From Acidihalobacter prosperus (GTDB lineage: Bacteria; Pseudomonadota; Gammaproteobacteria; DSM-5130; Acidihalobacteraceae): 64,000 nucleotides of DNA. Shown here one piece after another: positions 529 through 8,787 of the stretch (its first letter is position 1; the number at the start of each line of letters is the position of its first letter). The notes beneath the pieces are model-generated. The model had not been told where the DNA came from. It did not search any database and was given only the letters and a program-made list of their open reading frames with translations. The stretch spans positions 649,401-713,400 of the forward strand of contig NZ_JQSG02000003.1 of the NCBI RefSeq assembly GCF_000754095.2, in the 5' to 3' direction. The position numbers and the translations under genes are program-made.

Positions 529-1971
529 TCAGAACACCGCGGTCAGCTCCAGATCGATTCGGTTGCCCATCGAATTGGCGATCTGCTGCGCGTTGTTGCG
601 CTGCACCGGATTGGTGATCGCATCCGGGTGCGGCACGTCCAGCTTCTGGATTGCGTAGTTCAGGGTCAGGCGCGTGCTCTTGGTGAGGAAGTACTGCGCT
701 CCCAGCGTCCAGGTCTTGAAGTCGCGTTCCAGCGCCGCGTTGTTGGTCAGGCGGTTGTACTGGTCGTAGCGCAGCTGCAGCTGGACGTTGTGGGTGACGT
801 AGTAACCGCCCTGGATGTACGCACCCCAGGCCTTGTTGTCGCTGCCGGGATAGATGGTCCACTGGGTCAGGTTGTTGTATCCACCCAGAGCCTGGCCGGA
901 GTACTGGCTGGCTACGGACGCGTCGTACTGGAACGGCGCGGGCGCGAGGATCCATCCACTTGCCTGCATGTAGCCGGCGTGCATGATGTAACCGCCGGCC
1001 TGACGCTGGTGCCGCCCGTATTCGCCGCCCACACCCCAGCGGTTGAGCTTGTAGGTGCCGATCTGATCGATCTTGCGCTGGCCGTTGTGGAACCACACCC
1101 AAGCGCCAGCGTCGTTGCGATAGGCGCCCTTGCCGCCGAACACGTAGGACATGCGCAGCATGCCGTAGGTGTCCATGCCGTTGTTGTTGTTGGTGGCGGT
1201 GATCGGCCCACCGTTGCCCACCATGAAGGCGTAGGCATATTCCCAGGGGCCGCGGTCGAACCAGTTGAATACCTTGAGGCCGATATCGCGATACGAGCCA
1301 TAACCCGTCACATTGCTACTCGAAGGAATGAACTGGTATCCGCCATTGCCCGCCGATGTCACCTGCGTCTTGGGATCGATGAAGCGTTCCAGCGTATTCT
1401 GCAGCGAAGCCGTACTGTAGTTGACGAACGGCAGCACCGGGATGCCCACGCGCGACTCCCAGCTGCCCGGCACCTTCTGCAGGCCCAGCGAGAAACGCAC
1501 CAGCTTGGGATCGGCATTCCAGGTCACGAAGGCATCCGAAACCACCGGGTGCTGGCCGGCGAAGTAGGTCATGCCATTGTTGCCGAACTCGGTCAGGAAG
1601 AAGTAGTCGACCTTGTTGTCCAGCGGCGACAGCGTGCCGCGCACGCCGATACGGCCGCGCAGCAGGTTGAAGCTGTTGGTGGAACTCAGATTCGGACCGA
1701 TCAGGTTGAAGTTCGGCACCGCGCCGTTGAAGGCCCGGACCGAAGGTGGTCCCTGCAGGCCGCTGACGGTATTGCCGCTGGTGGTCGCATAGTCGGGCTG
1801 GATGAAGCCCCAGACATTGACCGGCTTCGACACGCCCGGGGGCGAGGTATTGTAGAGCTGCAGCCAGTTGGCCGCCTCGGCGGATTGCGCCGCAAGGCCC
1901 ATGGACGCGGCGACGGCCGCGGCCAGCATGCTCTTGGCGAAGACGGTCTTCGAAGGATTTTTCATAGACAC
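529..1971 (-). CDS. Outer-membrane beta-barrel porin
   Basis: A 480-residue precursor with a signal peptide (residues 1-33, cleavage after AEA) followed by alternating polar/hydrophobic beta strands, many aromatic residues and a C-terminal phenylalanine (TAVF), the outer-membrane insertion signature. Length and composition fit general or anion-selective porins of the OprO/OprP type; the solute cannot be read from sequence. GGGGAG upstream of the first ATG supports the start. It lies 56 bp downstream of the secreted DsrE-like gene on the same strand with no separate promoter seen, so the two are probably cotranscribed. That would make this the channel component of the neighbouring ECF-sigma module. 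Confidence 0.8.
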   Translation of the reverse strand: MSMKNPSKTVFAKSMLAAAVAASMGLAAQSAEAANWLQLYNTSPPGVSKPVNVWGFIQPDYATTSGNTVSGLQGPPSVRAFNGAVPNFNLIGPNLSSTNSFNLLRGRIGVRGTLSPLDNKVDYFFLTEFGNNGMTYFAGQHPVVSDAFVTWNADPKLVRFSLGLQKVPGSWESRVGIPVLPFVNYSTASLQNTLERFIDPKTQVTSAGNGGYQFIPSSSNVTGYGSYRDIGLKVFNWFDRGPWEYAYAFMVGNGGPITATNNNNGMDTYGMLRMSYVFGGKGAYRNDAGAWVWFHNGQRKIDQIGTYKLNRWGVGGEYGRHQRQAGGYIMHAGYMQASGWILAPAPFQYDASVASQYSGQALGGYNNLTQWTIYPGSDNKAWGAYIQGGYYVTHNVQLQLRYDQYNRLTNNAALERDFKTWTLGAQYFLTKSTRLTLNYAIQKLDVPHPDAITNPVQRNNAQQIANSMGNRIDLELTAVF

Positions 1972-2027
1972 TCCCCTGATCTCGAATTGTTATGAACGAA
2001 ATGAAACCCGGAACGACGCGCCGTCGA

Positions 2028-2498
2028 TCAGGGCTTGATCAGAATGTAGCCATGCTGCACGAGATCCACGATGCGCGCGGCGCCCGCCGGGACCACCTCG
2101 GCCTCGGGATTCAGCTTCGGGGTGTAGCCGAGCTGTTTGGAGAAATTCATCAGCGTGTTGTGGCAGGCGTCGAACTTGATGCCGTAGTTCTTGGCCATCT
2201 CGATGACACGCTTGCGGTTCACGTTGTTGTCGAGCAGCAGGCGCAGGCCGGGCCCGAAGGCCACAATTTCAAGATCGACCTTGTCCGGGCCGTAGTAGCG
2301 GGCCAGATTGGCCGCCACATTGAGAACCAAGGTCTGCTTCATCGGGTTGGGGTCGCTGATCTGCAGCACGATATGGTGGGTGGCGAAAGGCTTCTGTTCG
2401 ATGGGCGGCATCTTCACTTCGGCGGAAGCCGGGCCGGCCGCCAGCAGGCCCAGTGACACCAGCGCCAGCAGCGCCCTGAAAACAAATCGACTCATCAT
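2028..2498 (-). CDS. Secreted DsrE-family protein
   Basis: 156 residues: a signal peptide (1-26, cleavage near ASA) and one DsrE/DsrF-like domain (about 40-156). The family's cysteine position is occupied (Cys112, in DACHNT), and the C-terminus reads LVQHGYILIKP, resembling the end of the DsrE half of the anti-sigma protein encoded at 3462-4202. Cytoplasmic DsrE proteins carry sulfur on a cysteine; secreted members are poorly characterised, so a periplasmic sulfur- or redox-ligand role is inference. A second Met one codon in could be the start. It is divergent from the sigma factor and has the same candidate promoter motif. Confidence 0.8.
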   Translation of the reverse strand: MMSRFVFRALLALVSLGLLAAGPASAEVKMPPIEQKPFATHHIVLQISDPNPMKQTLVLNVAANLARYYGPDKVDLEIVAFGPGLRLLLDNNVNRKRVIEMAKNYGIKFDACHNTLMNFSKQLGYTPKLNPEAEVVPAGAARIVDLVQHGYILIKP

Positions 2499-2586
2499 GG
2501 TGATCTCCCTCTGGATAGCGATACTTATCGTCTTTTCTTACAACCGCACGCCATCGCACGCGGTGTGAGGCAATCCTCAATGAACC

Positions 2587-2614
2587 AAGATGCGCCCCGT
2601 TTAACACTTATTCC
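2587..2614 (-). promoter_or_regulatory. Candidate ECF promoter of the dsrE-like gene
   Basis: On the minus strand GGAATAA (2614 down to 2608) is followed after exactly 17 nt by TCTT (2590 down to 2587). The same two boxes with the same spacing lie upstream of the ECF sigma gene at 2839-2866. A GGAA-type -35 and a CGTC/TCT-type -10 are usual for ECF promoters. The predicted leader is about 80 nt. Confidence 0.6.
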
Positions 2615-2640
2615 ACAAATTCTTCACAAAAACTCACAAA
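2614..2640. repeat. Three helically phased CACAAA direct repeats
   Basis: CACAAA occurs at 2614-2619, 2625-2630 and 2635-2640, spaced 11 and 10 bp, one helical turn apart. The set abuts the candidate -35 box of the dsrE-like gene on its upstream side, where an UP element or activator array would sit. Confidence 0.6.
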
Positions 2641-2710
2641 TATTATTATCTCAATATAATCAATGTGTTGTGATTTCAAAAAAACAACAAGAGCGAACTA
2701 CAAATGCACT

Positions 2711-2730
2711 ATTTAATTAAATAATTAAAT
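2711..2730. repeat. AT-only inverted repeat, possible operator
   Basis: ATTTAATTA (2711-2719) and its perfect reverse complement TAATTAAAT (2722-2730) are separated by 2 bp. The 9-bp arms resemble a dimeric repressor site, but low-complexity AT sequence can give such dyads by chance. Confidence 0.4.
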
Positions 2731-2838
2731 ATAAATTCATAATATTAATAACTGTTGATTTACTCACGCACGCCATCCCCATCGACTGCCCGCGCGCCGC
2801 CGCGACAATGCGCCGCCCCCCGGCGGGCGCCGCCCGTG

Positions 2839-2866
2839 GGAATAACTTCGGTATACTGGACGTCTT
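2839..2866 (+). promoter_or_regulatory. Candidate autoregulated ECF promoter of the sigma gene
   Basis: GGAATAA (2839-2845), 17-nt spacer, TCTT (2863-2866), about 27 nt before the sigma-factor ATG. It matches the box pair and spacing upstream of the divergent dsrE-like gene. A TATACT at 2852-2857 could instead be a sigma-70 -10 box, but no -35 partner is visible 17 bp upstream. Confidence 0.55.
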
Positions 2867-2892
2867 AATGTCTGGAAACGAGCCCGAAACCC

Positions 2893-3462
2893 ATGGACAC
2901 GCCAGGTATGTTTGACCTCGTCAGCCTATCCAGCCAGATCAAGAAGCGTATCGCCGAAGAGCGGCCGCGCCTCTACCGCATGGCCTATGCCTGGTGTTGC
3001 GACCCCACGCTTGCCGACGATCTGGCACAGGAGGCCATCTCCAAGGGCCTGCAGAAGGCCGGGCAACTGCGCGAGGCCGAACGACTGCAAAGCTGGCTCT
3101 ACGCGATACTCCACAACTGCTGGCGCACGCATCTGCGTCGGCAGCGCCCGGATCAGCCTCTCGACGAGGAAGCCTTTCCCTGCGACGACTGCCCGGAAAC
3201 GGTCAATCAGCGGCAGCAGGTCGTGGACCGCGTGCGCGCGGCCATCAAGGCGCTGCCCCTCGGTCAGCGCGAGGTGATTACCCTGGTCGACCTCAACGGT
3301 TTCGCCTATGCGGAAGTGGCACGTATCTTGGATATACCCATTGGCACCGTCATGAGCCGTCTCAGCAGAGCGCGTCAGGCCCTGCTGGTCGCCCTGGCGG
3401 ACGTACAACAGCAATCTCCGCAGACGTCATCTCCACGCGCCTCACTCAGAAGGGTCAAGTGA
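2893..3462 (+). CDS. ECF-family RNA polymerase sigma factor
   Basis: 189 residues with the two ECF domains: sigma region 2 at about 18-85 (LADDLAQEA, RLQSWLYAILHNCWR) and region 4 at about 115-170 (ALPLGQREVITLVDLNGFAY, then a helix-turn-helix with GTVMSRLSRAR). It redirects RNA polymerase to a small regulon. Its stop codon overlaps the start of the next gene (TGATG), so sigma and anti-sigma are translationally coupled, the usual arrangement. Met6 is an alternative start. The likely targets are itself and the divergent dsrE-like/porin genes. Confidence 0.9.
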   Translation: MDTPGMFDLVSLSSQIKKRIAEERPRLYRMAYAWCCDPTLADDLAQEAISKGLQKAGQLREAERLQSWLYAILHNCWRTHLRRQRPDQPLDEEAFPCDDCPETVNQRQQVVDRVRAAIKALPLGQREVITLVDLNGFAYAEVARILDIPIGTVMSRLSRARQALLVALADVQQQSPQTSSPRASLRRVK

Positions 3463-4202
3463 TGAACACGGGATTTCGTGACGATCCTCGACTGCACGCC
3501 TACATCGACAACGAACTCGATGTGGACGATCGTGCCGAGCTGCTCGAAACGATGTATGAGGATACGGACCTGCGCAATCAGGTCTGCGAACTGCGCCGCA
3601 TCAAGGATCTGGTCCAGCAGGCTTACTTCGTCCCACCTCCACCGCCGCAGGCACACGCAAGCCGGCGCGGCTTCGGCCAACGTCGGTCCATCGCGGCCTG
3701 CTGCGCGGTACTCGCGCTGATGCTGCTGAGTTTTGCCGGCGGCTGGCTGGTCCACTCGCGCGAGGACGCGGCCTCGCTGACCGACCACCTCGCCGGACTC
3801 GGCGCCATCCGTCTCGACACAGGTCTGGGCACGGAGGCGGCACCGCCGCGGGTGCTGCTGCATGTGGCCACGGACAATCCGGTCAAGTTCGCGGGTACCC
3901 TGCAGCAGGCCAGCTATCTGCTGAACAAGGGTGGCCGAGATGGCATCGAGGTCGAAGTCGTCGCCAATGCCGGCGGGCTCAAGCTGCTGGAGGCCAACGA
4001 CAACTCCGATTATGCGACCCGCATCCGCGAAATGATGCGCAAGTATCCGAACCTGCATTTCGTCGCCTGCGGCATCACGCTGCACCATCTTGAGGCAGCA
4101 GGCGTGCCGGTCGACCTGATACGGCACGTACGGGTTGCGCCTTCAGCCGTGGAAGAGGTGGTCAAACGCCTGCGCCAGGGCTGGATGTACGTCAACATCT
4201 AA
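3462..4202 (+). CDS. Transmembrane anti-sigma factor with periplasmic DsrE domain
   Basis: 246 residues. Residues 1-55 (HAYIDNELDVDDRAELLE) resemble the helical sigma-binding part of zinc-type anti-sigma factors but lack the HX3CX2C zinc ligands; the only cysteine in the stretch is Cys42. A proline-rich linker (57-63) leads to one membrane span (about 77-98). The remainder (about 129-246) is a DsrE-like domain with cysteine at VACGIT (Cys203), predicted to be periplasmic. The ATG overlaps the sigma stop. By analogy with other one-pass anti-sigma proteins, the outer DsrE domain should sense an envelope signal and release the sigma factor; the signal itself is inferred to be sulfur/redox related. 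Confidence 0.8.
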   Translation: MNTGFRDDPRLHAYIDNELDVDDRAELLETMYEDTDLRNQVCELRRIKDLVQQAYFVPPPPPQAHASRRGFGQRRSIAACCAVLALMLLSFAGGWLVHSREDAASLTDHLAGLGAIRLDTGLGTEAAPPRVLLHVATDNPVKFAGTLQQASYLLNKGGRDGIEVEVVANAGGLKLLEANDNSDYATRIREMMRKYPNLHFVACGITLHHLEAAGVPVDLIRHVRVAPSAVEEVVKRLRQGWMYVNI

Positions 4203-4231: not shown

Positions 4232-5287
4232 CTAGGCCAGGTAGGCACGGAAGGCCTCTTTGTGCGTGCTGTGGGTGTAGGCTTCGTGCCCCTCGATGAC
4301 GCCGGCGTCGACCAGCCGGCGGAGATCGCCGTCCATGGTCTGCATGCCCACCAACGCGCCGCTCTGCATCGCAGTTTCCAGCTGTCCGACCTTGCCGTCC
4401 CTAATCAGGCTCGACACGGCTGCGGTATTGACCAGCACCTCTGTGGCAGCAACCCGTCCAGAACCCTCGGCACGGCGCACGAGCTGCTGCGACACCACGC
4501 CGCGCAGGGACGTCGAAAGCATGATCCGGACCTGCGACTGCTTACCGGCGGGAAATACGTTGATCAACCGGTCCACGGTGAGATCCGCCCGCCGCGTATG
4601 CAGGGTGCCGAGCACCAGGATACCGGTCTCCGCGGCGGTGACCGCCAGCGCAATGGTTTCGTGATCGCGCAGTTCGCCCACCAGAATCACGTCGGGGTCC
4701 TCGCGCAGCGCCGAGCGCAGTGCGGCCGCGAAGCTCGGCGTGTGCTCGCCGACCTCGCGCTGGCTGATCAGACTACGCTTGCGCGAATGCACGAACTCGA
4801 TGGGGTCCTCGATGGTGAGGATGTGGCCACGCCGCTTGGAATTGATAAAATCGACCATCGCCGCCAAGGTGGTCGACTTGCCCGAGCCGGTCTTGCCGGT
4901 CACCAGCACCAGCCCCTGCTTGTGCTGACAGAGGCTGCCCAGCACCGGCGGCAGGTCTAGCGCCTCCAGCGATCTCGGCACATGAGGGATCGCCCGCATG
5001 ACCAGGCCAAGGCCGCCGAGATGGCGGAAGAGATTGACCCGGAAACGCGCCTGATCGGCCATTTGATACGCGAAATCGACTCCGTCCTCGCGCTCGAACC
5101 GCGCCCGGGCATGCTCGCCCAGCAGCTCGCCCGCCATGGTTTCGATTTCCTCGGCGGGTAGCGGGCTGTCGGATACGGCCTGAAGTTCGCCGTCCAGTCG
5201 CATCCGGGGACGCTGCCCCGCAATCAGGTGCATGTCGGAACCGCCGCGCTGCAGCAAATCCTCCAGCCAGCGATCCACGCGGCTCAC
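4232..5287 (-). CDS. PilT/PilU-like type IV pilus ATPase (second paralogue)
   Basis: 351 residues with the full GspE/PilT ATPase set: Walker A GKTGSGKST, Asp box TIEDPIEFVH, Walker B LREDPDVILVGELRD and His box TGILVLGTLHT. It starts 2 bp after the upstream PilT paralogue ends. The PilT C-terminal AIRNLIRE motif is degenerate (VSSLIRDGK), and the short C-terminus resembles PilU. Retraction ATPases work on the inner face of the membrane, but no pilin or pilus assembly gene is nearby. Membership of an operon with a Ser/Thr kinase suggests regulated surface motility or a repurposed motor. Confidence 0.85.
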   Translation of the reverse strand: MSRVDRWLEDLLQRGGSDMHLIAGQRPRMRLDGELQAVSDSPLPAEEIETMAGELLGEHARARFEREDGVDFAYQMADQARFRVNLFRHLGGLGLVMRAIPHVPRSLEALDLPPVLGSLCQHKQGLVLVTGKTGSGKSTTLAAMVDFINSKRRGHILTIEDPIEFVHSRKRSLISQREVGEHTPSFAAALRSALREDPDVILVGELRDHETIALAVTAAETGILVLGTLHTRRADLTVDRLINVFPAGKQSQVRIMLSTSLRGVVSQQLVRRAEGSGRVAATEVLVNTAAVSSLIRDGKVGQLETAMQSGALVGMQTMDGDLRRLVDAGVIEGHEAYTHSTHKEAFRAYLA

Positions 5288-5289
5288 GC

Positions 5290-6384
5290 TCAGCCCCCGG
5301 CCAGGCCGACGCGCGGCAGCAACGATGCGTCGGTCACGAAGCGCTGGAATGCCTTTTTATCCTGCGCGTAGAGATAGGCGTCGTCCGGATCGATCAATTT
5401 GCGCTGGATCCCGTCGAGCAGACCCTGGTCAAGCAACTGCATGCCCGCCTCGCGTCCGGTCTGCATGACCGAGGGGATTTGATGCGTCTTGTCGCTGAGC
5501 AGCATCTGCGCGACCGCGGGCGTCATGGCCAGGGATTCCACCACCACGCGACGTCCGCCCCCCTCGGCCGAACGCACCAGCACCTGGGAGATGACCCCTC
5601 GCAGATTGTTCGCCAGGAAACTTTTGCCCTGCTCGCGCTGCTCGGCGGGCAAGGCGTCGATGATCCGGTCGATGGTCTTGACCGCCGTGGTGGTATGCAG
5701 CGTGGCCAGCACGAGATGGCCGGTTTCGGCGGCGACCATGGCCATCATGATGGAGTCGGGATCACGCAGCTCGCCGACCAGGATCACGTCGGGGTCCTCG
5801 CGCAGCGCCGAACGCAGACCTTCGCTGAACCCGGGCACATGGGTACCGATCTCGCGCTGGACGATCTGCGCCTTGCGGCTCTCATGGATGAATTCGATCG
5901 GGTCTTCGAGCGTGATCACGTTCAGTGCATCCTGCCCGTTGATGAGATCGAGCATGGCCGCCAGGGTGGTGGATTTACCCGTGCCGGTCGAGCCGGTCAC
6001 CAGCACCATGCCCTGACGATGCTCGGCCAGACGATGAACCACGGGCGGCAGGCCCAGATCACCAAGGCTCGGCACGAGCGAAGGGATGTGTCTGAACGAG
6101 GCGCCGATACCGGTCGCCTTGCGAAACACATTGGCGCGAAAGCGGCCGACGCCCTCGGCCATGTAGGAAAAATCGAGATCCTCGCCCAAGCGGTAGCGCT
6201 GCTTGAGATTCTCGCTGAGGATTTCGAAGACGTAACCCAGCAGCTCGCGATCGCCAAGTTCCCTGAAACGAATCGGCATGATTTCGCCGTTCATGCGCAG
6301 CAACGGCGGCGAACCCACCGCCAGATGCACGTCGGAACACCCCTGTTCGCGACCGAGTTTCAAGAAGGCATCAATACGCGCCAC
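5290..6384 (-). CDS. PilT/PilU-like type IV pilus ATPase (first paralogue)
   Basis: 364 residues. It shows Walker A GSTGTGKST, Asp box TLEDPIEFIH, Walker B LREDPDVILVGELRD and His box TGHLVLATLHT, all intact. In place of AIRNLIRE it has VAQMLLSDKTHQI, keeping only the KTHQI tail. It lies 18 bp downstream of the kinase gene and 2 bp upstream of its paralogue. A PilT-PilU pair acting as a hetero-motor is known for twitching pili; whether this pair is the organism's main retraction motor or an extra one cannot be told here. Confidence 0.87.
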   Translation of the reverse strand: MARIDAFLKLGREQGCSDVHLAVGSPPLLRMNGEIMPIRFRELGDRELLGYVFEILSENLKQRYRLGEDLDFSYMAEGVGRFRANVFRKATGIGASFRHIPSLVPSLGDLGLPPVVHRLAEHRQGMVLVTGSTGTGKSTTLAAMLDLINGQDALNVITLEDPIEFIHESRKAQIVQREIGTHVPGFSEGLRSALREDPDVILVGELRDPDSIMMAMVAAETGHLVLATLHTTTAVKTIDRIIDALPAEQREQGKSFLANNLRGVISQVLVRSAEGGGRRVVVESLAMTPAVAQMLLSDKTHQIPSVMQTGREAGMQLLDQGLLDGIQRKLIDPDDAYLYAQDKKAFQRFVTDASLLPRVGLAGG

Positions 6385-6402: not shown

Positions 6403-8787
6403 TCACAGCCGGTGATCGTGCATAAAGGGCTCCAGCGTACGCCGCACCTCGGACATGTTGCGGAAACGTTTGTCCGGGTCGACGGCCATCATGCGGGCGA
6501 CGAAAGCACTCAACGTGCGTGAGATTTCGGGGTTGCGCTCGTGCAGTGGCGCGGCGCCACCCTGCACATGCTGATACATCACCGCTACGTTGTCCTCACC
6601 GCTGTAGGGCGAGCTGCCGGCGAGCATTTCATACAGAATCACGCCGAGGCTGTAGATGTCCGTGCGCGCGTCGATGGTCTTGCCGAGCACCTGCTCGGGC
6701 GCCATGTAGCGGGGCGTGCCGACCAGCAGGCCGGTTCGCGTCAAACGCGTATCGGTGCTGTCGACCGCAGCGGCGACACCGAAATCCACGATCTTCACCA
6801 GATTGTGTTCGTTGGTGAGGATGTTGCCGGGCTTGAGATCGCGATGCACGATGCCGATCGCATGCGCCGCGGTCATGCCCGCGGCGACTTCATGCGCGAT
6901 GTGCAACGCCCGCTCCAGGCTGAGTGGCACCTGCGCCTTGACCTCGGCGGACAGGGCCGTTGAAGGGAAGTATTCCATGCTGATCACGTACAAGCCGCCC
7001 AGCATGAAAAAATCGTAGATCCGAATGACGTTGCGGTGCTCGATGCGCTTGGCGAAATGATGTTCGCGCTGGAAGCGCCGCACCATGTTGTCGTCCACGG
7101 CCATCTGCGGATGCAGAAACTTGAGGATAACCTGCTCGCCGCGCACCAAATCCTCGGCCAGCGTCACCGTGCCGAAGGCACCGCGCCCGATACGCCGGAT
7201 ATGGCGGTATCGCTCGCCCAACAGCTCGCCTGCGCGCAGCAGCTTGAGCTTGATCGGCGGCCCCTCGATGACCGGCACCTCCGCTTCCGCGCTCCCGGCT
7301 TCCGAGGCATCCCCGGTCATCGGCGTGGCATAGGTTGCGGCGGCCGCACCCGGTGCGGCGTAGCGTTCACCTAGGCGGATCGCACAGTCGCGCGCCAGTT
7401 CGCGCACTTCGTCTTCCGGCGCGCTCTGGGCCGCTTTCTCCAGGCGCCCGCGGATTGTCGGAGCATGCGCCGCATCGGCCAGTTCCACGAGCACCAGCAT
7501 CGCTTCGCTGCGCACCGCCGGCTCCGGCCGGTTGAGCTGCGCCGATACGGCCTCGATCTGCTCCACGCCACCCAGACGCATCAGTGCCCGCAGCACTGCG
7601 ACCGCGGTCGAATCGTCACGCTCAAGCAGCGGCATCAGCGCCGGCACGGCGGCCTTGTTGCCCAGCTTGGCGAGCGCATCGACGGCTCTTTCGCGCACCC
7701 ACCAGTCCGAATCCGCCAACGCATCGATCAAATGCCGGAACGAGGCCTCGTCCTTGATCGAGTTCATGATCTCCACCGCGGCACGACGGATGAATTCATC
7801 GTCGTCACGCAGCAGGGAAACGACCGCCTGAATCACTCGGCTGCCGCCGATTCGAGCCAGGGCGTCCGCAGCACGCGCGCGCACCCACCAGTCGTCGTCA
7901 CGAATGGCCCGGAGCAGCGTCTTGATCGCCGTGGTATCCCCGATTTCGTTGAGGATCTCGACGCCGGCACGCCTGACATACTCCGACTCGTCGCGCAGGA
8001 TGTCGATCAGGTGGGTGAGTGTCTCGGGGTCCTGCATCCGGATGATGGTTTCCACCGCGCGCCCCTGTATCGACATGTCGCTGTCGCGCAGCAGGCGAAA
8101 GGCGGTTTCGATATCCAGTGCACCGGGATGGGCCGCGAGACCTTCGAGGGCGAGCTGGCGCACCGTCTTGCCCGGGTCGTCGAGCAACTGGCGCAGAGCC
8201 TCATGCGCCTGCGGATGATCGAATCGCCCCAATACACGCGCCACGCCCTGTCGAATCTGCAGATCACGGGCGTTGGCGCGGCTCGCCAGCTCGGGAATCA
8301 ACGACGGCTCCGCAATCTCCGCGAGCAGACGGAAGGCGATATTGCGTTCGCTGGGGTCCAGGTGGCTGATCTGACGCAACACGCCGGCGGCATCGAGCGC
8401 CTTGCCCTGCGCCGACAGGATATCCAGCAACGCCGCCTTGGGGACCGCCGGGTCCGCCAGAAACTCCAACAGATGATTGGGGTTATAACCCCGTCCACCA
8501 CGCAGGATCTCGACCGCTGCCTGGGCCAGGCGCGGCTCGCCGGCGGCCAGCACACGGTGGAAATGCGGTAGGCTGTCGTCGTCCAGCAGCCGCGTCAGAA
8601 TCTGGACGAGCCGGCCGCGATTGGCGCTTTCGCCGGACGCCAGCAGGCGAATCAGCCGAGGTATGGACTCGCCCGCGCACTCGCGCAACTTCTGCAGGGC
8701 CTCCACACCCTCCACCGAGCTGATCTGCTTGATAGCCAGCATCTGCGCGATGCGTCGTTCGGTGCGGAAATCTCGGAACAGACTCAT
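6403..8787 (-). CDS. HEAT-repeat / Ser-Thr protein kinase fusion
   Basis: 794 residues. Residues about 20-475 are a run of HEAT-like helical repeats (recurring DDDWWVRARAADALARIG-type units, e.g. 298-315 and 360-377). A low-complexity Ala/Gly/Glu linker (478-508) joins a complete Hanks-type kinase: glycine loop GRGAFGTV (533-540), Lys556, HRDLKPGN (648-655), DFG (668-670), APE (696-698). No membrane span is present, unlike PknB-type sensor kinases, so it is cytoplasmic with the repeats as a protein-binding scaffold. It lies 15 bp after the unknown 155-aa gene and 18 bp before the first PilT paralogue, making the ATPases plausible partners or substrates (inference). Confidence 0.88.
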   Translation of the reverse strand: MSLFRDFRTERRIAQMLAIKQISSVEGVEALQKLRECAGESIPRLIRLLASGESANRGRLVQILTRLLDDDSLPHFHRVLAAGEPRLAQAAVEILRGGRGYNPNHLLEFLADPAVPKAALLDILSAQGKALDAAGVLRQISHLDPSERNIAFRLLAEIAEPSLIPELASRANARDLQIRQGVARVLGRFDHPQAHEALRQLLDDPGKTVRQLALEGLAAHPGALDIETAFRLLRDSDMSIQGRAVETIIRMQDPETLTHLIDILRDESEYVRRAGVEILNEIGDTTAIKTLLRAIRDDDWWVRARAADALARIGGSRVIQAVVSLLRDDDEFIRRAAVEIMNSIKDEASFRHLIDALADSDWWVRERAVDALAKLGNKAAVPALMPLLERDDSTAVAVLRALMRLGGVEQIEAVSAQLNRPEPAVRSEAMLVLVELADAAHAPTIRGRLEKAAQSAPEDEVRELARDCAIRLGERYAAPGAAAATYATPMTGDASEAGSAEAEVPVIEGPPIKLKLLRAGELLGERYRHIRRIGRGAFGTVTLAEDLVRGEQVILKFLHPQMAVDDNMVRRFQREHHFAKRIEHRNVIRIYDFFMLGGLYVISMEYFPSTALSAEVKAQVPLSLERALHIAHEVAAGMTAAHAIGIVHRDLKPGNILTNEHNLVKIVDFGVAAAVDSTDTRLTRTGLLVGTPRYMAPEQVLGKTIDARTDIYSLGVILYEMLAGSSPYSGEDNVAVMYQHVQGGAAPLHERNPEISRTLSAFVARMMAVDPDKRFRNMSEVRRTLEPFMHDHRL

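What the first reader, a model, noticed from the sequence alone, without database searches (positions are those of the whole stretch)
529..4202. ECF sigma / DsrE-fused anti-sigma / secreted DsrE / porin module
Seen: an ECF sigma gene is overlapped by a one-pass anti-sigma gene whose outer half is a DsrE-like domain, and a secreted DsrE-like protein plus a porin are encoded divergently. Known: anti-sigma sensor halves usually match the signal, and DsrE proteins carry sulfur on cysteine. Inference: the secreted DsrE protein and the anti-sigma DsrE domain bind the same ligand or each other, reporting envelope sulfur or redox state and switching the porin. I do not know of a described switch of this design.
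Basis: partly seen in the sequence, partly recalled or inferred. Interest (0 to 1): 0.85.

Follow-up and report, generated by a model that had tools for sequence, protein, structure and literature searches.

The report
Sulfur-sensing sigma switch for sox genes
A pair of gene-control proteins found in many sulfur-oxidising bacteria is likely a switch that reads reduced sulfur outside the inner membrane with a DsrE-type domain and is predicted to turn on a secreted DsrE protein, an outer-membrane channel and the sox sulfur-oxidation genes.

Summary
The window (an Acidihalobacter-type genome) holds an ECF sigma gene (2893-3462), an overlapping one-pass anti-sigma gene with a C-terminal DsrE-fold domain (3462-4202), and, divergently, a secreted DsrE gene and a porin gene. 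It is no local oddity: 66 of 369 sampled class genomes carry a full-length DsrE-fused anti-sigma; 38 of 87 such genes examined face a divergent secreted dsrE, 36 of these with a porin, and 15 more have dsrE downstream. The candidate active cysteine is kept in 87 of 87 sensor domains. One ECF-type motif, GGAATAA-N15-C(G/A)TC, sits before both the sigma gene and the divergent dsrE, and recurs before soxX, soxB and a YeeE/SoxT-like transporter gene at conserved distances in three Acidihalobacter genomes. 65 of 66 genomes with the fusion have soxB, against 97 of 303 without. The motif precedes soxB in 17 of 60 genomes with the fusion, 0 of 39 without. Best reading: a trans-envelope sulfur sensor controlling sulfur oxidation. 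Direct pairing of the two DsrE domains is not supported by coevolution. Ligand and regulation are untested.

The parts
2893..3462 (+). ECF sigma factor gene (189 aa)
   Evidence: Pfam Sigma70_r2 and r4_2 above cut-off; a sigma gene lies beside 82 of 87 DsrE-fused anti-sigma genes
3462..4202 (+). Anti-sigma gene (246 aa): N-terminal helices, one membrane helix, DsrE-fold domain predicted to lie in the periplasm
   Evidence: 87 such genes in the loci fetched, window included
3684..3752 (+). Membrane helix of the anti-sigma (about residues 75-97)
   Evidence: hydrophobic run in the sequence; helix 74-103 in the model
3843..4199 (+). DsrE-fold sensor domain (residues 128-246)
   Evidence: 1l1s match on residues 130-244; Foldseek 2pd2 TMt 0.83
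4068..4070 (+). Codon of Cys203, candidate sulfur-binding cysteine
   Evidence: invariant in 26 of 26 aligned and kept in 87 of 87
2839..2866 (+). Predicted ECF promoter of sigma/anti-sigma: GGAATAA-N15-CGTCTT
2587..2614 (-). Predicted ECF promoter of dsrE-porin: GGAATAA-N15-CATCTT
2028..2498 (-). Secreted DsrE protein gene (156 aa; signal peptide about residues 1-26, read by eye)
2163..2165 (-). Codon of Cys112 of secreted DsrE, aligned with Cys203
   Evidence: BLASTP alignment; invariant 22 of 22; Cys kept in 39 of 39 divergent copies
529..1965 (-). Outer-membrane porin gene (ORF open to GTG at 1971)
   Evidence: AlphaFold2 barrel, nearest solved fold OprP 2o4v; a porin lies behind dsrE in 36 of 38 divergent loci

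Best explanation
This is a membrane-spanning ECF sigma/anti-sigma pair that likely senses reduced (sulfane) sulfur in the periplasm through a DsrE-fold domain on the anti-sigma and is predicted to switch on a secreted DsrE protein, a porin and the sox thiosulfate-oxidation genes. Shown: the gene order, the DsrE fold by prediction and sequence match, the conserved cysteine, one shared promoter-type motif before sigma/anti-sigma, dsrE-porin, soxX, soxB and a YeeE/SoxT-like transporter gene in three Acidihalobacter genomes, and near-complete company with soxB. Inferred: without signal the N-terminal part of the anti-sigma holds the sigma factor at the membrane; when sulfane sulfur (from thiosulfate, polysulfide or SoxYZ) loads Cys203, the sensor changes shape and frees the sigma, which transcribes its own operon and the sulfur genes. 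Inferred: secreted DsrE is a target that carries or buffers the same periplasmic sulfur, and the porin lets the sulfur anion in; both would set the level of the signal rather than dock on the sensor.
For: Conserved module: 66 of 369 class genomes (own included), in 40 GTDB families, carry the full-length fusion; 38 of 87 genes face a divergent dsrE and 15 have dsrE downstream. Sensor cysteine kept 87 of 87, secreted divergent DsrE 39 of 39. Promoter motif read off the window alone: among 36 other loci with divergent dsrE, sense 29, antisense 25, both 23, shuffle means 0.06, 0.12 and 0; where dsrE is downstream, sense 12 of 14 and antisense 0 of 14. Genome-wide: 20 sites in three Acidihalobacter genomes against 3 with the reversed pattern; 14 of 20 precede sigma, dsrE, soxX, soxB, a second secreted DsrE or the Sulf_transp gene, at near-constant distances (soxB 143-147, soxX 207-210, Sulf_transp 79-83 bases). 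Nine other genomes: 26 sites against 1 control, 13 of 26 before the same kinds of gene. soxB present in 65 of 66 genomes with the fusion, 97 of 303 without. Motif within 450 bases before soxB in 17 of 60 against 0 of 39 genomes, p 7e-5. Module inside or beside a sox cluster in three loci.
Against: No expression, binding or chemistry data. 43 of 60 genomes with the fusion show no motif before soxB with this pattern, and for soxX the contrast is weak, 9 of 23 against 2 of 20, p 0.03. 30 of 87 anti-sigma genes have neither dsrE nor porin beside them. 6 of 20 and 13 of 26 motif sites lie before other genes or none. The co-occurrence test is not corrected for phylogeny. 20 of 80 named dsrE loci show no fusion in the stretch fetched, 77 of 80 a porin, so dsrE-porin also occurs without the pair next door. 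Other ECF sigma factors of the same cell might use a similar motif. The cysteine could serve redox or metal sensing instead.
Confidence: 0.64

Rival explanations
1. The secreted DsrE protein is the direct ligand: it docks on the DsrE domain of the anti-sigma (as DsrE proteins form oligomers, recalled) and so reports envelope sulfur state.
For: The two domains are homologous, 29% over 115 aa, encoded face to face in 38 of 87 loci and share a motif.
Against: No specific coevolution: r 0.23, partial -0.10 over 32 loci, while anti-sigma/sigma and dsrE/porin pairs reach 0.70 and 0.71. Anti-sigma DsrE domains are a clade apart (87 of 87, support 0.70). The downstream dsrE genes group mostly apart from the divergent ones (13 of 15 in one split, support 0.92), and 34 of 87 anti-sigma genes have no neighbouring dsrE.
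Confidence: 0.17
2. The sensor is a general thiol redox or metal sensor (oxidant, arsenite, metal stress) that happens to live in sulfur oxidisers; Cys203 is oxidised or metallated.
For: A single conserved cysteine fits oxidation as well as persulfidation. DsrE/F-like genes and, in one strain, sox genes respond to arsenite in Thioalkalivibrio (PMC6620896, passages).
Against: Many predicted targets are sulfur-oxidation genes, and the fusion tracks soxB in 65 of 66 genomes; thiol stress is not confined to sox-bearing bacteria.
Confidence: 0.13
3. The sigma factor controls only itself and dsrE-porin; the motif before sox genes is used by another sigma factor or activator.
For: 43 of 60 genomes lack the motif at soxB. 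In Arcobacter two different ECF sigma factors act on sox in opposite ways (PMC3445524, passages).
Against: The same boxes at the same distance occur at soxB and soxX in all three Acidihalobacter genomes, and the motif is seen before soxB only in genomes that have the fusion (17 of 60 against 0 of 39).
Confidence: 0.12
4. The pair watches envelope or porin folding stress, like RpoE/RseA (recalled), and the DsrE domain is only a structural scaffold.
For: A porin is among the predicted targets; one-pass anti-sigmas often sense envelope stress (general knowledge).
Against: The DsrE cysteine is kept in 87 of 87; the targets that could be named are mostly sulfur genes, and none seen was a chaperone or periplasmic protease.
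Confidence: 0.04

Closest known systems
SoxR / sHdrR with SoxT1B of Hyphomicrobium denitrificans (PMC10451225, passages; PMC11582611, passages)
   Same: Works like it: a cysteine-based response to sulfane sulfur that controls sox genes, with a YeeE-like SoxT protein in the same system; a Sulf_transp gene carries the motif here.
   Different: SoxR is an ArsR-type repressor that binds DNA. Here the predicted sensor is a periplasmic DsrE domain on a membrane anti-sigma and the output is an ECF sigma factor. [quoted passage not shown]
   Same: ECF sigma factors that change sox transcription, shown by mutants.
   Different: Another bacterial group; DsrE occurs 0 times in the text, the regulons are broad (nap, tct, sox), and the signal is not known from the passages seen. 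Whether its anti-sigma has a DsrE domain was not tested.
RpoE4/RpoE1 of Sinorhizobium meliloti, ECF26 (PMC3511301, passages)
   Same: ECF sigma plus anti-sigma answering sulfite/thiosulfate and driving a sulfite oxidase (SorT).
   Different: Regulates sulfite oxidation, not sox; no DsrE domain mentioned (the only DsrE hit in the text is DsRed).
RsgI-type anti-sigmas of cellulolytic clostridia (recalled)
   Same: The outer half of the anti-sigma is of the same family as the secreted proteins that the sigma controls.
   Different: Polysaccharide-binding modules and SigI-type sigma, not DsrE and ECF.
DsrE/DsrF/TusD sulfur-carrier family; MTH1491 (1l1s), ST0148 (2pd2)
   Same: Fold and the single cysteine, aligned in 1l1s and 2pd2.
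   Different: Those are free proteins (recalled as cytoplasmic); here the domain sits across the membrane on an anti-sigma.

Membership tests
ECF sigma factor | Sigma-70 regions 2 and 4 without a full region 3 | tested here: met
   Pfam r2 45.5 and r4_2 59.5 bits, no region 3 match, 189 aa; TIGR02937 74.9 against cut-off 42.9
ECF sigma factor | Assignment to a named ECF group | not tested
   No ECF-group models at hand; the NCBIfam equivalogs among the 25 shown are below their cut-offs
Class I anti-sigma factor | Gene overlapping the sigma gene, N-terminal helical domain before one membrane helix | tested here: met
   Overlap; helices 9-15, 21-33, 35-54 then 74-103
Class I anti-sigma factor | Sequence match to an anti-sigma domain model / zinc motif | tested here: inconclusive
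   zf-HC2 14.3 against 22.2 bits, NF052375 16.9 against 100; no HxxxCxxC in the sequence. PMC7406223 passages mention non-zinc groups
DsrE/DsrF-like family (anti-sigma C-half) | Pfam DsrE curated cut-off | tested here: not met
   13.9 against 22.7 bits
DsrE/DsrF-like family (anti-sigma C-half) | DsrE fold and conserved cysteine | tested here: met
   2pd2 TMt 0.83, E 1.5e-6; 1l1s 4.2e-5; Cys 87 of 87. So: DsrE-like by fold, outside Pfam's curated cut-off
DsrE/DsrF-like family (secreted protein) | Profile match and conserved cysteine | tested here: met
   22.8 bits with its neighbours in the frame, cut-off 22.7, but 22.3 in hmmscan; profile of relatives against 1l1s 3.7e-12
TonB/FecR cell-surface signalling | TonB-dependent receptor as partner | tested here: not met
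   The partner is a porin-type barrel, nearest OprP, MOMP and OmpF types
SoxR-type regulation | ArsR-family repressor | tested here: not met
   None of the four genes of the module is ArsR-type. Whether the genome has a separate SoxR was not tested
Sulfur-responsive regulator (functional likeness) | Sulfur loads the sensor cysteine and frees the regulator | not testable with these tools
   Needs biochemistry

The most novel reading that the evidence does not exclude
A previously undescribed, widespread way of sensing sulfur across the membrane: a DsrE domain, known as a sulfur carrier, has become the periplasmic receptor of an anti-sigma factor, takes sulfane sulfur on its cysteine, and releases an ECF sigma factor that is the sox regulator of many gammaproteobacterial sulfur oxidisers.
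Probability: 0.52. Interest if true: 0.9.

Novelty: new variant of a known kind. Interest (0 to 1): 0.83.

Why it matters
Little is known about how sulfur-oxidising bacteria sense inorganic sulfur compounds (PMC10451225, abstract). Apart from the Arcobacter ECF factors, the sox regulators met in the papers seen here are ArsR repressors of alphaproteobacteria. A conserved sigma/anti-sigma pair with a sulfur-carrier domain as its outer half, a readable promoter motif and a short target list would give many gammaproteobacterial sulfur oxidisers a candidate sox regulator and make the question directly testable by one deletion, one C203S mutant and one promoter fusion. It would also give the DsrE fold a role as a signal receptor, which I do not know to be described. 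The ten literature searches made here listed no description of such a pair; they cover only open-licence PMC papers, and most hits were seen as listings.

Tried and rejected
Direct DsrE-DsrE partnership was tested by comparing distance matrices over 32 loci and not supported. A shadow-ORF or artefact reading of the anti-sigma was rejected: 28 database proteins, its own included, and 87 genes in fetched loci. True SoxB divergent from the sigma gene looked likely in three loci (cluster c7 in L063, L082, L101), but the two tested (L082, L101) are SoxB-like proteins at 175-180 bits, below the SoxB cut-off of 550; L063, cut by the contig end, was not tested. A copy of the second secreted DsrE with the motif was not established in G000: L031 has only a one-mismatch site and was matched by the dsrE query, not by the dsrE2 query. 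The S. meliloti system was considered as the same family; the paper shows no DsrE. Conservation outside the class: 3 of 398 phylum-wide genomes have the full-length fusion, own genome included, all of the same class; the other matches cover the DsrE part only, or that part with some residues before it. The zinc-binding anti-sigma class was considered, but the motif is absent. ECF group assignment was left undone for lack of models. PWM scores were trained on the sites they score and are not used as evidence.


Full report
Place. The window lies in a 3.36 Mb genome (G000, 8 contigs). The closest named relative of the anti-sigma is from Acidihalobacter aeolianus (81%); its contig length, 3,363,634, equals that of G002, which the tools rank in the same genus as the window, so I infer the genus Acidihalobacter, acid-loving sulfur and iron oxidisers (recalled).

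Genes. Sigma 2893-3462 (+) has regions 2 and 4 of an ECF sigma factor. The anti-sigma 3462-4202 (+) starts on the last base of the sigma stop codon. It has an N-terminal helical part, an Arg-rich stretch, one membrane helix and a C-terminal domain. Pfam gives that domain only 13.9 bits for DsrE, below cut-off, but the PDB search finds DsrE-like MTH1491 (1l1s, 4.2e-5, residues 130-244), BLASTP aligns it with the window's own secreted DsrE (29% over 115 aa, 8e-11), and the AlphaFold2 model (26 sequences, mean pLDDT 77.7, pTM 0.52) finds DsrE-like ST0148 (2pd2, E 1.5e-6, TM 0.83 over the target) as its only match at E <= 0.001; YchN (1jx7) and 3mc3 follow at 8e-3 and 1.6e-2 among unrelated low-TM matches. 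The divergent gene 2028-2498 (-) encodes a DsrE protein with a signal peptide (by eye); 1338 relatives lie at E <= 1e-8. The gene after it, 529-1965 (-), is an outer-membrane barrel (pLDDT 83.2) nearest OprP, then MOMP and OmpF types, with anion-selective Omp32-type porins further down; many relatives carry PF07396 (accessions; recalled as the phosphate-selective porin family).

Conservation. With the window protein, 16 of 56 genomes (own included) match at E <= 1e-3, DsrE-only matches included. With an alignment of 18 fusions, 106 of 369 genomes of the class match at 1e-8, and 66 (own included) hold a full-length fusion (model positions at most 10 to at least 239; counted by hand from the list), in 40 GTDB families. 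I fetched 86 loci around these and earlier hits, two of them without a fusion; with the window they hold 87 fusion genes. By a sigma gene lies beside 82 of 87 (one search shows one in two more, L064 and L078); a divergent secreted dsrE faces 38 of 87, with a porin behind it in 36 of the 38; 15 have dsrE downstream in the same direction; 4 have a divergent porin only; 30 have neither dsrE nor porin. Some loci are cut by contig ends, so these are lower bounds. Two loci (L080, L086) have two sigma/anti-sigma pairs in tandem. Among 80 named genome loci found from the secreted DsrE (the best 80 of 275), 60 also have the fusion, 63 a sigma and 77 a porin within the 5 kb flanks or what the contig allowed; names include Thiohalobacter, Thiogranum, Halothiobacillus, Hydrogenovibrio, Guyparkeria, Sedimenticola and Thiolapillus, and, without a fusion nearby, two Rhodanobacter MAGs. 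Phylum-wide, 3 of 398 genomes have the full-length fusion, own included, all of the same class.

Cysteine. Cys203 is invariant in 26 of 26 aligned fusions. In the 87 fusion genes a motif search finds it in 85, and the other two show Cys at the same place when read. The secreted divergent DsrE proteins keep the aligned cysteine in 39 of 39 (36 by motif, 3 read), the downstream ones in 14 of 15.

Promoters. Counting pairs of 4-mers upstream of the sigma genes gave GAAT or GGAA with CGTC at fixed spacing in 40 of 82 regions against 0.15-0.5 expected from shuffles, and the reverse complement as well. The window has GGAATAA-N15-CGTCTT at 2839-2866 (+), 26 bases before the sigma ATG, and GGAATAA-N15-CATCTT at 2587-2614 (-) before dsrE. 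GAA and GT elements are often found in ECF promoters (PMC3511301 passage). With the pattern GGAATA-N15-17-C(G/A)TC read off the window, the other 81 regions gave: divergent dsrE (36) sense 29, antisense 25, both 23, shuffle means 0.06, 0.12, 0; divergent porin only (4) 4, 4, 4; dsrE downstream (14) 12, 0, 0; others (27) 18, 6, 5. So the antisense site is found in 29 of 40 regions with a divergent dsrE or porin and in 0 of 14 where dsrE lies downstream; three of the six in the last group face a SoxB-like gene (L063, L082, L101).

Regulon. In the three Acidihalobacter genomes the strict pattern gives 20 sites against 3 with the reversed pattern. Fourteen of 20 precede sigma (3), dsrE (2), soxX (3), soxB (2), a second secreted DsrE (2) and a Sulf_transp (PF04143, YeeE/SoxT-like) gene (2). 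With the last two bases relaxed, the missing dsrE (G001), soxB (G002) and Sulf_transp (G000) sites appear. Distances from the CRTC box to the gene start are nearly constant across the three: sigma 26-30, dsrE 86-91, soxX 207-210, soxB 143-147, Sulf_transp 79-83, second DsrE 54-59 in two genomes, while the bases between the boxes differ. The other six sites lie before genes without a known sulfur role, or before none. In nine further genomes 26 sites (1 in the control) include sigma 5, secreted DsrE 3, porin 1, soxB 2, soxX 1 and Sulf_transp 1, that is 13 of 26; the other 13 lie before other genes or no ORF.

Link with Sox. SoxB (TIGR04486) is in 162 of 369 genomes at 1e-20, 148 over cut-off; at 1e-20 some non-SoxB nucleotidases may be counted, as the control genomes ring (6 of 14, none over cut-off). 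Of the 66 genomes with the fusion 65 have it, of the other 303 97 do (Fisher p 3e-26, not corrected for phylogeny; with a stricter set of 148, picked by eye, 64 of 66 against 84 of 303). In 60 fetched sox regions of genomes with the fusion the motif lies within 450 bases before soxB in 17; in 39 of genomes without, in none (p 7e-5; reversed pattern 0 and 0). For soxX it is 9 of 23 against 2 of 20 (p 0.03). In L114 the module adjoins soxZ, soxA, a SoxAX-binding-like gene (below its cut-off), soxB and a second dsrE; in L087 it adjoins soxA and soxB; in L071 soxB lies three genes from the anti-sigma (positions).

Evolution. The 87 anti-sigma DsrE domains form one group apart from the secreted ones (exact split, support 0.70). 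Over 32 loci with all parts, distances correlate for anti-sigma sensor with sigma (0.70) and for secreted DsrE with porin (0.71), but hardly between the two DsrE domains (0.23; partial -0.10 given sigma and porin). This speaks for two units joined by regulation, not for a tight complex.

Mechanism. Shown: architecture, fold (by prediction and sequence), cysteine, motif, target list by motif, company with soxB. Inferred: the anti-sigma holds sigma until sulfane sulfur reaches Cys203; sigma then drives its own operon, the periplasmic DsrE and porin, and sox and transport genes. Untested: ligand, direction, release step (shape change or proteolysis).

Prior work. Searches for DsrE with anti-sigma or ECF terms listed nothing on point (of the papers they listed I read passages of PMC3511301 only). 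ECF control of sox is known from Arcobacter butzleri sigma 2 and sigma 7 (PMC3445524, passages). Sulfane-sulfur control of sox is known for the ArsR repressor SoxR with SoxT1B (PMC10451225 and PMC11582611, passages; PMC12423496, listing only). Extra domains of class I anti-sigmas are described as conserved within groups (PMC7406223, passages; DsrE occurs 0 times). So the parts are known kinds; the DsrE receptor, the module and its predicted tie to sox are, as far as searched, new.

Noticed in passing
L063, L082, L101 (divergent to the sigma gene): A SoxB-like protein (710-724 aa in L082 and L101, 175-180 bits to TIGR04486, below cut-off 550; cut by the contig end and untested in L063) takes the place of dsrE-porin; pattern sites occur on the antisense strand in all three.
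   Followed up: partly
L140, L328, L341: The motif also precedes a periplasmic phosphonate-binding-type protein (PF12974) in three genomes; a possible extra target, perhaps for a sulfur anion.
   Followed up: partly
L136 and L346: The motif precedes a HAD-type hydrolase with a signal-like N-terminus and a shared stretch (IKAIAFDxFPIFDPRPIFGL) in two genomes of different families.
   Followed up: partly
L080, L086: Two sigma/anti-sigma pairs in tandem followed by dsrE, with a divergent dsrE-porin: possible two-input version.
   Followed up: no
L144 (G001): The Sulf_transp gene after the motif aligns as two overlapping pieces (query 10-84 and 82-408), suggesting a frame break or sequencing error.
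   Followed up: no
window 4232-6384 (-): Two adjacent ORFs that read as PilT/PilU-like ATPases (by eye) follow the anti-sigma gene; ORFs of the same cluster follow it in G001, G002 and G003 and also turn up near three other loci (L055, L056, L083). Probably unrelated neighbours.
   Followed up: partly
window 6403-8787 (-): A 794-aa ORF that reads as HEAT-type repeats fused to a Ser/Thr protein kinase domain (by eye, not searched).
   Followed up: no
L263, L268, L279, L299, L323: dsrE-porin with the motif upstream but no fusion or sigma found in the fetched stretch: the sigma may act in trans there, or lie beyond the contig end.
   Followed up: no
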